A DNA stretch of 64,000 nt from contig CALMLO010000014.1 in assembly GCA_937868095.1 (NCBI GenBank), positions 124,001 to 188,000 of the forward strand, in the 5' to 3' direction. This document shows, in pieces, positions 48,352 to 54,564 of this stretch (the first letter of the stretch is position 1; each line of letters opens with the position of its first letter). The notes beneath the pieces are model-generated. The model searched no databases, had not been told where the DNA came from, and was given only the letters and a program-made list of their open reading frames with translations. Position numbers and translations under genes: made by a program. Source of the stretch: an uncultured Phycisphaerales bacterium (lineage in GTDB: Bacteria > Planctomycetota > Phycisphaerae > Sedimentisphaerales > Anaerohalosphaeraceae).

Positions 48352-50307
48352 GTGGGGATGACGTTTTTCGAAAAATATCGGAACACTTTTCGAAAAAACA
48401 GTTTGAGAAACGTCCCAAAAAGGATGTCTTTCATTGTTTGGCTGGGGTTGCTCTGTCTGGAGATGGGATGTGCCCGTGAAGAATCAGCCGACCAGAAAAT
48501 TCGGACATTCCTGGAGCGAAAATCAACAGAAATTGAATCCCGCCTTATTTTAAACGAACTTTCACAGGTCCGTGAAAATCCCCATATTGCCAACCCTCTG
48601 CCGGCGATGTATCGTCAGCCCCCTGTTCGGCTGAAGGTTCCCGATGGGATAAAACTTTTTTATTTTACCAAATACCACTCCTCCGGCGACCTTTCCTTCA
48701 AGAGTCAGGATAAGGTCAAAGAAAAGGAAGTTCACGCACTTGCCGGAGCTCTGCGAGACCTGGGCTTTAAAGTGAGCTCCAATCTCATGACCAATCAGCT
48801 GATTATCCATTGTGCGGATGATGCTGAATGTGATCAGGTTCTTGAATTTCTTGAACGCCTGGATGTGCCCCCTATTCAGGTCCATATTGACTGCCTCATT
48901 CTCGAACGATTCGGGGATATTACCATGGATTGGGAGACCTCCATGCTGATAGAGAATCTTTTTGGCGAGGAAGTGACCCTTGGGGCTTCCAAATATCCCC
49001 GTCCGGCTTTTCCAGGTGCTTCCCTTCGGGAGAGCCGCCGCTCGGAGTTTGGGATGGATTTCGGGTATTGGCATAAGAAAGGGGTCGATGGCCACCAGAT
49101 TCGTCTGATGGTGGATTTGCTTGAATCCCGCGGGTATTTGAAAATTCTGCTGAATCCTTCTCTTGAAACAGTAAACGGAAAAGGTGCTACAATCACCATT
49201 AGGGATAACGCTCCAATCGAACTGCAGGTTACAGCCAAGGGTGCCTCAGAACAGAACAACACGATTACCTATACGCTGACCGATTACAAATGGGTAGCCG
49301 ATTCTTTGACGGTCACCCCGCAAGTCTATGCAGACGGTTCTATCGGCCTGAAAACTTCTATTACCATCGGCTCAAAATCCAAGCCCGAAGGGGTTGTGCA
49401 AACCTCTATTATTACAGAACGCAAGATTGATGTGGAGGAAAACCGCATCGAACCTGGCAAAAGTTTGGTTATTGGCGGTATGCGCAAGAGCGAAAACCGT
49501 TCTGTTATCCGCGGCATTCCAGGTTTGAAAGACCTGCCGATTGTGGGGATCCTGTTTTCGAGCAAGGATTACGAAGAAAAAGCGACCGAAATCATTTATA
49601 TTTTGACGCCGAGTATCTCCTCGGGCAGCATTCCTTATGCCGAAGCTGCCCAGATTGTTCGCAGCAAATATGAAGCTCCCCAGCGAGGACAGACTCTCGA
49701 GGAAATTGTCGGCGACCTGATGGGTTCTGAAATGTACACCAATCTGCTCGAGAAGCAGGCGGCCGAGGCAAGGGCCTCTCTCGTTCGAGCTCAGCGGGAG
49801 GCTGCCCAAGCTCAGCGTCTGGCGGAAGAGTATCGCCAGCAAGCCCAGACGGCTCGTCAAAAGGCGGAGGAGTTCGAAACTTTGCGGAAACAGGCACAGG
49901 AGCAAATTGAAAAAGCCCGTCAGCAAATTGAGGAAACCCTTCGCAAAGCCCGCTCACAGCAGATGACAACAGAGGAGCAGCAGGCGCTTCGCCAGCAGCT
50001 GGAGCAGCAGATCGAACAGGCCAGACAGCAGGCCCAAGCAGCGGAAGCAGCAGCTCAGCAAGCCCAAAGACGAGCGGCGGAAATGGAACAGCAGGCCGCC
50101 CAGGCCGCTGAACAGGCCGCCAAGATGCGCCAGGAACAGGAACGGATTCAAGAAGAGCAGAAACAACTCCAGCAGAAGCAGGAACAGCAGCAGAGGCAAG
50201 CGGAGCAGAAAAAAGAGGAACAATCTCTCAAGCCGCCGACGGAAACGGAGACGGCTCCTACTGAATTTATTGAAAAGGAAGAACAAGGAACGGATGAACA
50301 GTCCTGA
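48352..50307 (+). CDS. Mini-secretin lipoprotein with C-terminal coiled coil (copy 1)
   Basis: A 651-residue protein (start GTG 48352; ATG 48358 is equally good). A basic N-terminus and LGLLCLEMGC form a lipoprotein signal (Cys40). One secretin N-domain-like unit ends NQLIIHCADDAECDQVLEFLERLDVPPIQVHIDCLI (in parts). The secretin domain follows with SRGYLKILLNPSLETVNGKGATI, ITERKIDVEENRIEPGKSLVIGGMR and PGLKDLPIVGILFSSKDYEEKATE. Secretins form outer-membrane rings. Residues ~450-620 are a long Gln/Ala/Glu/Arg-rich coiled coil. No ATPase, pilin or other secretion gene is nearby. A paralogue overlaps its end. Confidence 0.8.
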   Translation: MGMTFFEKYRNTFRKNSLRNVPKRMSFIVWLGLLCLEMGCAREESADQKIRTFLERKSTEIESRLILNELSQVRENPHIANPLPAMYRQPPVRLKVPDGIKLFYFTKYHSSGDLSFKSQDKVKEKEVHALAGALRDLGFKVSSNLMTNQLIIHCADDAECDQVLEFLERLDVPPIQVHIDCLILERFGDITMDWETSMLIENLFGEEVTLGASKYPRPAFPGASLRESRRSEFGMDFGYWHKKGVDGHQIRLMVDLLESRGYLKILLNPSLETVNGKGATITIRDNAPIELQVTAKGASEQNNTITYTLTDYKWVADSLTVTPQVYADGSIGLKTSITIGSKSKPEGVVQTSIITERKIDVEENRIEPGKSLVIGGMRKSENRSVIRGIPGLKDLPIVGILFSSKDYEEKATEIIYILTPSISSGSIPYAEAAQIVRSKYEAPQRGQTLEEIVGDLMGSEMYTNLLEKQAAEARASLVRAQREAAQAQRLAEEYRQQAQTARQKAEEFETLRKQAQEQIEKARQQIEETLRKARSQQMTTEEQQALRQQLEQQIEQARQQAQAAEAAAQQAQRRAAEMEQQAAQAAEQAAKMRQEQERIQEEQKQLQQKQEQQQRQAEQKKEEQSLKPPTETETAPTEFIEKEEQGTDEQS

Positions 50308-52198
50308 GATAAATAGGACGGCCATTGCTTTTCAGAAATATCGGCCTTTTGAATCCATTCACCGGTTCCGAAGGGCAATCCGAACGATTGCGCTTTTGAT
50401 AATTTTGGGATGTGCCGGCTGCGGCGGTTTTTTTGAGAAGCGCAGTACTGAAATGGAAGCGGCTCGTGTTCTCAAAGAACTGCGTGAAATTCAGGCGAAG
50501 CCCCAAATGGACAATCCGATTCCGGATCTTTATCTGCAGCCGCCCAGCCGCCTGGAGATTAAGGAGGGCGTGAAGGTCTTTTATTTTACTCATCATCATT
50601 CAGCTGACTATCTGGCGCAGCTGGTTCGCGAGCAGATGGATATCCAGGCCTTACCGCACGGGGCAACCAACCAGTTGATACTGTACTGCGGCGATCATTC
50701 GCAGGCCGATGCTGTCCTGGCCTATCTGGAAAAAGTGGATGTGCCTCCGGTTCAGGTGAATGTGGATTGTCTGATTCTCGAGCGATTCGGTGATGTCACG
50801 ATGGACTGGGAAACTTCTGTGTTTATTGAGAACTTTCTTGGGGAAAATCTGACCCTTGGCGAGAAGCTGGCAACTTTTTACGAAGGACAAAGCGGCGGCA
50901 AGCATTATGCTGTTCGAAATGGTCAACTTTTTGAAATTGACCCTGCGCAATACCCCGGCCTTCACTATCAGCCGGGAGAACTGATTGCCCTGGAACCGGC
51001 GTTTCCGGGGGCTTCGCTTCGAGAAACCGAACGAGCCAATTTTGGCGGGGATTTTGGCTATTGGATCAACCGAGGAAAGCCCGGTCATCAGGTCCGGGCA
51101 GTTTTGGATGTCTTGGTTTCTCGCGGCTATTTGAAGATTCTGCTCAATCCAACACTGGAAACTGTCAACGGCAAGCAGGCCACCGTAATGATTCGCGATT
51201 ATACCCCTGTCGAAAAGGTGAAAACCGGACTTGGGGGCGCCAGTGATGCGTATAATATCACGGAGTATGTTTGGGTAGAGGATACCCTTACGGTTACCCC
51301 CACGGTTTACTCGGATGGCTCGGTCGGACTGGCGACTTCAATTAAAATCGGTTCCCGCTCAAAACCAGAAGGGGTGGTCCAGCGTTCGATTATTACGGAA
51401 CGTTCCATTGAGATTGCGGAAAACCGGGTTCGCCCGGGCGAGAGTCTGATTATCGGCGGAATGCGGAAAACCGAGAAACGCTCCGTAGTGCGCGGAGTTC
51501 CCTTTTTTAAGGATTTGCCTCTTATCGGCTATCTGTTTTCGAGCAAGGATTTTGAGGAGAAAGGAACGGAGATTTTCTTTATTCTCACACCAAGTATCTC
51601 CAGCGGCGGCAAGCCCTTTGAGGTGGCTACAGAGGACATCCGCAGAAAATTTGAAAAGCCAACTCTGGAGTCTGCTCAGGAGTGGAATCTTTTGGAACCG
51701 TTCGAGGAGGGCTCTTACCGGCAGGTCATCGAAAAACGCGCTGCTGAACTTGAGACCCGCCGCGTGAAGGCAGAAGCACAGCGGGAAGAAGCATTGCAGC
51801 GATTGCAGGAGGAAAAACGTCATTTCCAAACTGCGGTAGAAGAAGCCAGGAAACTGCGTCAGGAAGCCATGACTTTGCAGGAGCAGGCTGCCAAGGCCCA
51901 GCAGGAAGCTCAGCAGGCAATAGAGGCAGCTGCGGCAGCAGAACAGCAGCAAAAAGCCCAGCAGGAGCAGACGACGGACCTTTCCGAAGCAGTTCAAAAG
52001 GCACTTGACGAAGCTCGCCTCAAACAGGCCCAGCTCCAGCAGGCCCAACAGCGAGCGGCGGAAGCCGAAGAAAAGGCCCGCCAGGAAGAGGAAGCCGTCC
52101 GTCAGATTCAGGGGGAATTGAAGCAGTTTGAACAGCAGGAAAAAGAATCACCGCCGCCTGGACCGGAAACAGCGCCTTCGCCATCGCTGGATAACTAA
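50294..52198 (+). CDS. Mini-secretin lipoprotein with C-terminal coiled coil (copy 2)
   Basis: A 634-residue paralogue of the upstream gene. ATG 50294 has AAGGAA just upstream and overlaps the preceding stop by 14 bases. Lipobox LIILGCAGC. Motifs run parallel to copy 1: PPVQVNVDCLILERFGDVTMDWETS (in parts), GYLKILLNPTLETVNGKQATV, VRPGESLIIGGMRKTEKRSVVRGVPFFKDLPLIGYLFSSKDFEEKGTE (in parts). It has an added ~45-residue segment (KLATFYEGQSGGKHYAVRN onward) before PAFPGASLRE that copy 1 lacks. The tail is again a Gln/Ala/Glu-rich coiled coil. Its stop touches the stop of the convergent glycosylase gene. The pair could form a hetero-oligomeric outer-membrane ring. Confidence 0.8.
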   Translation: MNSPEINRTAIAFQKYRPFESIHRFRRAIRTIALLIILGCAGCGGFFEKRSTEMEAARVLKELREIQAKPQMDNPIPDLYLQPPSRLEIKEGVKVFYFTHHHSADYLAQLVREQMDIQALPHGATNQLILYCGDHSQADAVLAYLEKVDVPPVQVNVDCLILERFGDVTMDWETSVFIENFLGENLTLGEKLATFYEGQSGGKHYAVRNGQLFEIDPAQYPGLHYQPGELIALEPAFPGASLRETERANFGGDFGYWINRGKPGHQVRAVLDVLVSRGYLKILLNPTLETVNGKQATVMIRDYTPVEKVKTGLGGASDAYNITEYVWVEDTLTVTPTVYSDGSVGLATSIKIGSRSKPEGVVQRSIITERSIEIAENRVRPGESLIIGGMRKTEKRSVVRGVPFFKDLPLIGYLFSSKDFEEKGTEIFFILTPSISSGGKPFEVATEDIRRKFEKPTLESAQEWNLLEPFEEGSYRQVIEKRAAELETRRVKAEAQREEALQRLQEEKRHFQTAVEEARKLRQEAMTLQEQAAKAQQEAQQAIEAAAAAEQQQKAQQEQTTDLSEAVQKALDEARLKQAQLQQAQQRAAEAEEKARQEEEAVRQIQGELKQFEQQEKESPPPGPETAPSPSLDN

Positions 52199-52864
52199 TC
52201 AAAAAGTATCCGCTCCGCTCTCGTGGGGCATCTCCTCCAGCGGACAGCCCCGGCAGGACGGCTTGGGCTTGCAGAACTCCTTGCCGCATCGCACCAGCAG
52301 GGCATGGTATTCATTGTAAAGGGCGACTTCTTTGGGCAGAGCGCTTTCAAAGAGGGATTGTATTTCAGCATAACCGTCCCCTTCGGCTATCAGATGATGG
52401 CGTCCGAGGATTCGGGCCGTATAGGCATCAACAACAAAGACGGGTTTTTCGATTGCATAAAGAAGAATGGAATCAGCCGTTTCAGGTCCGATTCCGCTGA
52501 TAGACAGAAGTTCTTCCCGCAGCTGCTCGGTTGGCTGGGTTTTCAGAGTCTGAATATTTCCGTCATATTTTTCCCACAGCCAAGTGATGAGATTTTTCAA
52601 TCGTTTGGCTTTGATATTGAAATAACCGGCCGGTCGAATCATCTCAGCCAGCTGTTCTTCCGGCACCTGATAAAGCCGCCGGACATCCAGTAGCCCGGCT
52701 GCTTTCAGATTGTCGATGGCTTTTTCTACATTCTTCCAGTTGGTATTCTGGGTTAAAACCGCCCCAATCATAATCTCCAGCGGGGTCTGCCCCGGCCACC
52801 AATACTGGGGGCCAAAGCAGGCATACAGTCGATTATAAAGGTCCATCAGAGTCTCGCTGCGCAT
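52199..52864 (-). CDS. Endonuclease III-like HhH-GPD DNA glycosylase, Lys-less type
   Basis: A 221-residue base-excision repair protein. PLEIMIGAVLTQNTNWKNVEKAI is the start of the HhH-GPD fold. The hairpin reads SISGIGPETADSILLYA, where endonuclease III has G-V-G-R-K-T-A, so the lyase lysine is replaced by Glu. The catalytic Asp is kept in VFVVDAYTARIL. A C-terminal CGKEFCKPKPSCRGC contains four Cys compatible with a 4Fe-4S cluster. This pattern fits monofunctional glycosylases related to MagIII (3-methyladenine). Convergent with the secretin gene without any gap. Confidence 0.82.
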   Translation of the reverse strand: MRSETLMDLYNRLYACFGPQYWWPGQTPLEIMIGAVLTQNTNWKNVEKAIDNLKAAGLLDVRRLYQVPEEQLAEMIRPAGYFNIKAKRLKNLITWLWEKYDGNIQTLKTQPTEQLREELLSISGIGPETADSILLYAIEKPVFVVDAYTARILGRHHLIAEGDGYAEIQSLFESALPKEVALYNEYHALLVRCGKEFCKPKPSCRGCPLEEMPHESGADTF

Positions 52865-52968
52865 TGATTTTCCTTTCCTGTGCGGATAAATTATCTTTAC
52901 TTTTCAGCAAGCGGATTTTACTGTTTTTCAGTTTTTGTGAAAAGGAAGAAGCCCTCACGGAACCTGAA

Positions 52969-53817
52969 ATGACGCGCCAAAAGCGAAAACGCCCGGATTC
53001 ATTTCGACAGCTGATGTCGTTCGTTCCTGATACCTATCTGGATCGGACCAGCCGGCCGATTTATGCTCTGGTATATCTGCTTGGGTTTATTCTGCTTTAT
53101 GAAGTCGGCACATATCTGATTGACCCCCAGGCCCTTTCCGAACGGCTGGCTCAGCCTCAGACGCGGGTTGTAGCGTTTTTGTGGGTGCAAAATGCCCTGG
53201 AATATCTGGGGTTTTCTCCCCGGATGATTTGGGTGGCGACCCCGCTGGTGCCCTTGGTGATTCTTCTGATTTGTCAGGCGACCTCCCGAAGTTCATGGCG
53301 GATTCACTGGCCTGATTTTCTGCCGATGACGGTAGAATGTTTGCTGCTGTCGGTGCCGCTGATTGTGCTCAGTCTTCTGCTCAACCGCTCGGCGGGAGTT
53401 GCGGCCAATGCGGCCTCGCTTTGGGGGACGGCGGGCAGCACCCTCAGGCAGGAACTCTGGCTGCAGATAATTACCGGCATTGGAGCAGGGATTTATGAAG
53501 AACTGGTGTTTCGTCTGATTCTGATTGGAATTTTGATGCTTCTTTTGCAGGATATTCTCGGTCTTGGCCGTCGGTTTTCGATTGCCGCCGCCGTCCTTTT
53601 GTCTGCCTTTCTGTTCAGCGTTCATCACCATATTTTTTTCGTGAATGGCCAGCTGGGTACTGGAGAGGCCTTCGGATTGAGCAAGTTTCTATTCCGGATG
53701 CTGGCAGGAGTTTATTTCGCAGTCCTCTATGCCCTTCGGGGCTTTGGGATCGCAGCGGGCACGCACGCCTTTTATGATATTTTAGCGGCGATGCTCAATC
53801 TGCTGGTGTTCAGTTGA
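52969..53817 (+). CDS. CPBP family intramembrane protease
   Basis: A 282-residue membrane protein with ~7-8 helices. The CPBP (CaaX protease and bacteriocin-processing) motifs are visible: GIYEELVFRLILIG (EExxxR), FLFSVHHHIFF (HxxxH-type), and GTHAFYDIL (His). An extension from TTG 52864 is in frame, but the basic start MTRQKRKRPDSFRQ at ATG 52969 looks natural. Bacterial CPBP proteins process peptides or serve in membrane quality control; the substrate is unknown. It lies head-to-head with the glycosylase. Confidence 0.85.
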   Translation: MTRQKRKRPDSFRQLMSFVPDTYLDRTSRPIYALVYLLGFILLYEVGTYLIDPQALSERLAQPQTRVVAFLWVQNALEYLGFSPRMIWVATPLVPLVILLICQATSRSSWRIHWPDFLPMTVECLLLSVPLIVLSLLLNRSAGVAANAASLWGTAGSTLRQELWLQIITGIGAGIYEELVFRLILIGILMLLLQDILGLGRRFSIAAAVLLSAFLFSVHHHIFFVNGQLGTGEAFGLSKFLFRMLAGVYFAVLYALRGFGIAAGTHAFYDILAAMLNLLVFS

Positions 53818-53943
53818 TCCTCTCGGAAAAATAAAAAATTTTTTCAATTTTTCTGCACTTCTTTACTTGTTGTTTCGTACAGACTTGCAAAAATTTGGTC
53901 CGATAAGGCAGGTTAAACCGCTTTTTCAGTATTGATAAGGCCC

Positions 53944-53973
53944 TTGATTTGTTTTTGCAGATTGGAGTATAAT
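53944..53973 (+). promoter_or_regulatory. Sigma70 promoter of the DUF2617-like gene
   Basis: TTGATT (53944-53949) and a perfect TATAAT (53968-53973), 18 bases apart, ~43 bases before ATG 54016. The rest of the 198-base gap (53818-54015) is AT-rich with no gene seen. Confidence 0.55.
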
Positions 53974-54015
53974 AGAGGCAACAAACAGGGATTTGCACAG
54001 AAAGGCAGGAAAACA

Positions 54016-54564
54016 ATGGATGCCCCGAAAACCAATCTGGCGGTGAGTGAATTAACATTTTCCCTCTTTCAGCGTCCGCTTCATCCAGAACTCTTTCGGA
54101 TTTATGCCCGCCGACATCTGAAAACCGAAGGGTATGAAATGCTCCTGTGGGCGACGGGTTGCTCTCACGTAGTGAGCGTTTTTGCGGCGGATGCATGCCT
54201 GACAGAATTGATTAGCGGTCCGGGACAGCCCCTCCCGCGCCGCGGTTTGATTGAGCGGTTTCCTTTTCGAGGTCCACGCACGCATAAGTGCACATTAAGC
54301 CGCGGGTTGAGTTATATGACCGATTTTCAGGTCGAAAAGATGAGTGCCAATCTTTATCGGCAGAGCCATCTGGATTTGCAGCGGTTCGCCCGAAATCGGG
54401 GGTTGTTTGTCGCTTTTGGAGGTGCCTCGGCAGAGGGGCTCGAACCATTCAGTTATATCGATTTTGAAGCACGCCGGGAAGAACTTCATATTCATGCCTT
54501 TCATGCCTTCCCGGAGCAGTTGACTATTATTAAGACCCAGTCCCTTTTCGATATGCACGGCTGA
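54016..54564 (+). CDS. DUF2617-like protein
   Basis: A 182-residue soluble protein. ATG 54016 has AGGA 6 bases upstream and follows a TATAAT promoter, so the longer frame from 53932 is rejected. It has LSRGLSYMTDFQVEKMS in the middle and a C-terminal ELHIHAFHAFPEQLTIIKTQSLFD, similar to the histidine- and proline-containing end I associate with DUF2617, a family of unknown function found in actinobacteria and planctomycetes. HIHAFHAF might bind metal. It has no evident operon partner. Confidence 0.6.
   Translation: MDAPKTNLAVSELTFSLFQRPLHPELFRIYARRHLKTEGYEMLLWATGCSHVVSVFAADACLTELISGPGQPLPRRGLIERFPFRGPRTHKCTLSRGLSYMTDFQVEKMSANLYRQSHLDLQRFARNRGLFVAFGGASAEGLEPFSYIDFEARREELHIHAFHAFPEQLTIIKTQSLFDMHG

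What the first reader, a model, noticed from the sequence alone, without database searches (positions are those of the whole stretch)
48352..52198. Tandem lipoprotein mini-secretins with long coiled-coil tails and no secretion system around them
Both genes have a lipobox, a single N-domain-like unit, a secretin core, then a Gln/Ala/Glu-rich coiled coil of ~170 residues (copy 1) or shorter (copy 2). Secretins of known systems carry several N-domains and sit beside ATPases, pseudopilins or inner-membrane platforms; none of these is here. A lipid anchor plus a coiled coil could make a self-anchored, two-component outer-membrane portal. Seen: sequence layout. Known: secretin function. Inferred: the portal.
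Basis: partly seen in the sequence, partly recalled or inferred. Interest (0 to 1): 0.75.

Follow-up and report, generated by a model that had tools for sequence, protein, structure and literature searches.

The report
N0-less liposecretin pair with coiled-coil tails
Two neighbouring genes encode stripped-down outer-membrane channel proteins (secretins) with a probable fat anchor and a long rod-like tail, a family confined to one order of planctomycete bacteria that is kept and repeatedly duplicated in place but precisely missing from some relatives, so it looks like an accessory channel that is not tied to any one secretion machine.

Summary
Window 48358-50307 and 50294-52198 encode two overlapping, 42% identical secretins (Pfam Secretin E 7e-29 and 1e-27). 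AlphaFold2 shows one N3-like domain, the secretin beta-domain and two long helices, but no N0 domain. The tails carry a 3.5-residue coiled-coil period (z 15.7). The lipobox cysteine is present in 66 of 76 relatives; copy 1's lipobox is degenerate. No T2SS/T4P ATPase lies on the 265-kb contig, but the genome holds five other secretins and at least ten GspE/PilB-type ATPases elsewhere.

The family is confined to one planctomycete order (65 of 397 genomes of the class, all in that order). It sits beside rimO among housekeeping genes, as a tandem pair in 21 of 32 loci and singly in 11. Tandem copies arose at least four times, or were converted. Cores evolve under strong purifying selection (dN/dS 0.02-0.07). 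The genes are cleanly missing in G017, G052 and G056, which keep their secretion ATPases and other secretins. Presence does not track a T4P operon within families, flagella, ATPase number or other secretins.

Best reading: an accessory, self-piloting outer-membrane secretin channel without a dedicated machine, with a coiled-coil skirt. Export through it is inferred. New variant of a known kind.

The parts
48358..50307 (+). Copy 1: liposecretin gene (ORF from GTG 48352; likely ATG 48358 or 48424)
   Evidence: core dN/dS 0.018-0.034 against same-genus orthologues
48469..48471 (+). Codon of the family's conserved lipobox Cys (Cys40) of copy 1; lipobox LEMGC is degenerate here
48622..48861 (+). 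Copy 1 single N3-like (KH-type) N-domain; no N0 domain precedes it
   Evidence: AlphaFold2; no N0/STN/Secretin_N Pfam hit, whereas secretins elsewhere in the genome have them
48877..49620 (+). Copy 1 secretin beta-domain (Pfam match 49120-49617)
49726..50226 (+). Copy 1 C-terminal coiled-coil tail, two helices of 78 and 86 residues
50294..52198 (+). Copy 2: liposecretin gene (ORF from TTG 50270; likely ATG 50294), overlapping copy 1 by 14 bases
   Evidence: core dN/dS 0.044-0.067
50420..50422 (+). Codon of the family's lipobox Cys (Cys51) of copy 2; Cys48 (ILGC) is an alternative
50546..50737 (+). Copy 2 single N3-like N-domain
50753..51601 (+). Copy 2 secretin beta-domain (Pfam match 51113-51598)
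50870..50992 (+). About 40-residue insertion in the loop before PAFPGASLRE, shared by the aligned same-genus second copy, absent from copy 1 (boundaries approximate)
   Evidence: alignments
51713..52147 (+). Copy 2 C-terminal coiled-coil tail, two helices of 79 and 59 residues
46837..48195 (-). rimO-like radical-SAM gene, conserved divergent neighbour
52199..52864 (-). Endonuclease III-like gene (HhH-GPD), conserved neighbour in part of the family
   Evidence: directly follows rimO in G017, which lacks the pair
52864..54564 (+). CAAX protease and DUF2617 genes, conserved neighbours in part of the family

Best explanation
These are accessory outer-membrane secretin channels that are not the dedicated exit pore of any one T2SS or type IV pilus machine in the genome. 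Shown: a conserved secretin core, a single N3-like domain, a conserved lipobox cysteine in most members, a coiled-coil tail, purifying selection, repeated tandem duplication (or conversion), and clean absence from relatives that keep their secretion ATPases. Inferred: the N-terminal lipid carries the protein to the outer membrane by the Lol route without a pilotin, as in HxcQ and BfpB; 12-17 subunits form a gated ring (mixed rings where two copies exist); the C-terminal helices, which leave the core where the S-domain of GspD lies, hang into the periplasm as a skirt of up to about 12 nm if folded back or 25 nm if extended. That skirt would do the docking or spacing done by N0-N2 in other secretins. 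Cargo and driving force are unknown.
For: Secretin core by sequence and by fold (all 40 best hits are secretins). No N0 in sequence or model. Positive control: N0 or Secretin_N domains are detected in four other secretins of the same genome. No T2SS ATPase on the contig. Conserved position beside rimO with housekeeping neighbours. Precise absence between rimO and nth in G017, and between rimO and the next gene in G052 and G056, with 13-14 ATPase hits and 5-7 secretin matches kept there. ATPase counts and other-secretin counts do not rise with the family (Mann-Whitney p 0.09, lower in carriers, and 0.38). Core dN/dS 0.02-0.07 in both copies. Heptad period z 15.7.
Against: No experiment shows ring assembly, outer-membrane location or transport. 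Absence of a dedicated machine is argued from gene neighbourhoods and presence patterns, mostly in draft genomes, and cannot exclude a shared machine. The model is a monomer with pTM 0.49, so the direction of the tail is an analogy with the GspD S-domain. About 10 of 76 relatives lack the lipobox cysteine.
Confidence: 0.5

Rival explanations
1. The pair is the trans-encoded exit channel of one of the genome's T2SS/T4P-type machines, for example the GspE-PilT-GspE-GspF-pseudopilin locus on contig C32 or the PilM-N-O-B-T-C operon on C60, which have no secretin beside them.
For: Several ATPase loci lack an adjacent secretin. Overall presence of the family is mildly associated with the C60-type PilM (Fisher p 0.012). 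Secretins have been recruited between systems before (PMC3459982).
Against: The PilM association vanishes within the own family (p 1.0) and within the other families (p 0.40). Three complete genomes (G037, G042, G046) have the secretin family but no C60-type PilM; G017, G020 and G056 have PilM but not the secretin family. Clusters matching the C32-type layout also occur in genomes that lack the secretin family. There is no N0 domain to meet a GspC/PilP-type partner.
Confidence: 0.3
2. The secretin fold is kept but the protein is mainly structural: a lipid-anchored ring whose coiled coils tether or space the outer membrane from the cell wall or inner membrane.
For: The tail is long and helical in nearly all members scored. 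Some tails (L082, L157, L159) end in hydrophobic stretches, one like an inner-membrane helix.
Against: The secretin core is the most conserved part while the tail evolves faster. No cell-wall-binding domain was found.
Confidence: 0.12
3. It is an outer-membrane partner of TolC/HlyD-type tripartite exporters.
For: Dispersed paralogues in genomes of one genus lie next to MacB/FtsX permease and OEP genes, and another in G676 next to a TetR-OEP-HlyD-RND-like set.
Against: Those paralogues lack the long coiled-coil tail or have a proline-rich one, and lie on the opposite strand from the pump genes; the related genomes may reflect one event. No such genes lie beside the main locus.
Confidence: 0.06

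Closest known systems
Lipoprotein secretins HxcQ (Pseudomonas Hxc T2SS) and BfpB (EPEC bundle-forming pilus, PDB 9u5s)
   Same: Secretin core; N-terminal lipobox Cys, in BfpB followed by a helix as here; need no pilotin to reach the outer membrane (PMC4604470, PMC12114550).
   Different: BfpB has N0 plus N3 and belongs to a pilus system, HxcQ to a T2SS. Here there is no N0, a coiled-coil tail is added, and no machine genes lie nearby.
GspD of T2SS (best NCBIfam and PDB profile match: TIGR02517, 5wq7)
   Same: Core and one N-domain align over about 335 profile positions.
   Different: 106.9 and 79 bits against a cut-off of 351; GspD has N0-N3 and a C-terminal S-domain instead of a coiled coil.
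Filamentous phage secretin pIV (7ofh; phrog_1012)
   Same: Best fold match by target-normalised score (TM 0.68 and 0.67).
   Different: No phage genes nearby; only two distant relatives (24-25% identity) among IMG/VR contigs.
Tad/RcpA-CpaC and RhcC2 secretins
   Same: Secretins that lack the usual platform-binding N-terminal domain (PMC3459982).
   Different: They carry a BON domain and serve Tad or T3SS machines; no BON domain was found here.

Membership tests
Secretin superfamily | Secretin beta-domain (PF00263) | tested here: met
   100.9 and 96.9 bits against cut-off 27.5; fold matches
Secretin superfamily | N3-type KH-like domain before the core | tested here: met
   AlphaFold2 mature residues 52-131 and 45-108; below the Pfam threshold by sequence
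Secretin superfamily | N0 domain (reported in every secretin seen so far, PMC12114550) | tested here: not met
   About 50 mostly helical residues precede the N-domain; no N0/STN match; control secretins in the same genome match
Secretin superfamily | Multimeric gated outer-membrane ring | not testable with these tools
   No multimer prediction or experiment available
T2SS GspD | TIGR02517 score above cut-off | tested here: not met
   106.9 and 79 against 351.35
T2SS GspD | Encoded with GspE/F/G genes | tested here: not met
   No T2SSE hit on the 265-kb contig; neighbourhoods
T4P PilQ | TIGR02515 score above cut-off; pilMNOP neighbours | tested here: not met
   72.9 and 69.3 against 284.35
Liposecretin (HxcQ/BfpB type) | Lipobox with conserved Cys | tested here: met
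   Cys in 66 of 76 relatives; copy 2 fits well, copy 1 is degenerate
Liposecretin (HxcQ/BfpB type) | Member of a T2SS or T4bP gene cluster | tested here: not met
Tad secretin (CpaC/RcpA) | BON domain before the secretin core | tested here: not met
   No BON match in Pfam

The most novel reading that the evidence does not exclude
A class of autonomous secretins in which the N0-N2 ring stack has been replaced by a C-terminal coiled-coil skirt, so that a lipid-anchored ring, in several lineages built from two paralogues, forms a trans-periplasmic conduit without any GspE/PilB-driven machine.
Probability: 0.2. Interest if true: 0.75.

Novelty: new variant of a known kind. Interest (0 to 1): 0.55.

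Why it matters
Secretins are usually seen as the outer half of a driven machine, with their N-terminal domains as the contact to the inner membrane. A conserved, order-wide family that lacks N0, adds a coiled-coil tail, sits among housekeeping genes and is duplicated again and again would show that the ring can evolve as a separate part. It could be tested in cultured members of the order, since the gene is dispensable in nature.

Tried and rejected
Dedicated secretin of the C60 pilus operon: the PilM profile shows exceptions both ways and no association within families. Flagellar outer-membrane ring substitute: FlgH is present in most flagellated relatives, and the family is present in genomes without flagellin. 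Conserved small downstream gene as partner: absent from the own genome and present in genomes without the family. Phage origin: only two distant relatives among viral contigs. Single old duplication: tree rejected (AU p 1.6e-57), with the caveat that gene conversion can mimic repeated duplication. Plasmid spread: only distant generic secretins.

Full report
Observation. Two overlapping genes on the + strand (likely 48358-50307 and 50294-52198, overlap 14 bases) encode proteins 42% identical to each other. Both match Pfam Secretin well above cut-off. The next best models are GspD and PilQ, far below their cut-offs. Profile search of the PDB finds 22 distinct sequences, GspD and PilQ first.

Architecture. 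AlphaFold2 on a 78-sequence alignment gives copy 1 a helix after the lipobox Cys, one N3-like domain, the secretin beta-domain and two helices of 78 and 86 residues. Copy 2, on 40 sequences, shows the same with helices of 79 and 59 residues. All 40 best Foldseek hits for each are secretins. No N0 is present; the same Pfam scan finds N0 in the secretins on contigs C69 and C33 (and, below cut-off, C38) of the same genome. [quoted passage not shown] The paper on type III secretins notes that Tad and RhcC2 secretins lack the usual platform-binding domain (PMC3459982), so a missing N0 is rare rather than without parallel. Tail hydrophobics repeat every 3.5 residues across 73 members (z 15.7), the mark of a coiled coil. 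Both cores evolve at dN/dS 0.02-0.07; where it could be estimated the tail was at 0.13-0.15, with synonymous sites near or at saturation.

Lipid anchor. The cysteine is conserved in 34 of 35 and 66 of 76 relatives. Copy 1's own lipobox is degenerate (LEMGC). Second copies in L125, L134 and L137, and a sub-lineage (L147, L151, L153, L161, L162, L165, L166), have lost it. Anchoring is therefore typical, not universal.

Distribution. In 392 genomes of the phylum 9 match, all in the own order. In 397 genomes of the class 65 match, all in the own order. Named records are Planctomycetota, Phycisphaerae or Sedimentisphaerales, apart from a few odd MAG titles. Within the order the family is patchy.

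Locus. The usual order is pgsA-like, rimO divergent, then one or two secretins, then nth, CAAX protease and DUF2617, or in deeper lineages a small gene and rpsB-tsf-pyrH-frr. In G017 the rimO and nth reading frames touch and both secretins are gone; in G052 and G056 rimO is followed directly by the small gene. These relatives keep 13-14 ATPase hits and 5-7 secretin matches, so the family is a dispensable module.

Pairs. 21 of 32 loci have tandem copies and 11 a single one. On the tree the copies group by lineage: own genus with g12 and g13, a second clade of f1 genera, G010, G037, and G042/G046. One old duplication is rejected (AU p 1.6e-57). Gene conversion is the alternative. Either way two copies are kept in several lineages, which fits dosage or a mixed ring. 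The second copy in the own genus carries a loop insertion of about 40 residues in the pore domain.

Relation to secretion machines. The genome has five other secretins, four of them beside GspE/F/pseudopilin or PilM-N-O type genes and one among chaperonin genes, and 16 T2SSE-domain hits. The C65 secretin has a TPR lipoprotein next to it that could be its pilotin. None of these is on the contig of the pair. Association with the C60-type PilM is p 0.012 overall but absent within the own family and within the rest, with exceptions both ways in complete or near-complete genomes. ATPase and other-secretin counts do not rise in carriers. Flagella are excluded as an explanation.

Mechanism. Best supported is an accessory, self-piloting secretin channel with a periplasmic coiled-coil skirt; transport, ring formation and partners are inferred. 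HxcQ and BfpB give the precedent for lipid self-piloting (PMC4604470, PMC12114550). The position of the tail follows from the S-domain lying directly after the secretin domain in GspD (PMC3542185).

Limits. No multimer modelling, no expression data, mostly draft metagenome bins. The genomes searched are one per species and unnamed. The literature searched is open-access only; no description of this family was found in it.

Noticed in passing
L258, L259, L260 (genomes G559, G585, G676), probably L262 (G679); L261:9305-14704: Dispersed paralogues without the long coiled-coil tail lie next to MacB/FtsX permeases and OEP (TolC-type) genes; another lies next to a TetR-OEP-HlyD-RND-like set. In L262 the secretin itself was hidden by a longer overlapping ORF in the listing.
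   Followed up: partly
L263:6830-10468 and L265:9289-11256: Secretin domains related to this family occur in other protein contexts: fused to a BlaR1-type M56 peptidase (two secretin stretches) and to DUF6807.
   Followed up: no
L151:2808-3218, L162:5363-5779 and similar (alignment A5): A small conserved protein without Pfam match (C-terminal motif VKTFFTKLHPGA...TEPNIIITVWY) follows the secretin gene in deeper lineages, before rpsB; it also occurs without the secretin.
   Followed up: yes
L108:9920-10396, L109:2016-2486, L110:9746-10216, L111:5771-6280: A probably secreted protein of about 160 residues (motif VHDGGxPGRLVDQLWWEW) follows the secretin gene in four loci; possible cargo or partner.
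   Followed up: no
L082:9392-12244; L157:5511-8066; L159:4105-6729: Very long tails (over 390 residues) ending in a hydrophobic stretch, in L082 resembling an inner-membrane helix.
   Followed up: no
G000 contig C32:64500-75000 (L026): GspE-PilT-GspE-GspF followed by four large pseudopilin-like genes without an adjacent secretin; the GspE-PilT-GspE pattern recurs across the order.
   Followed up: partly
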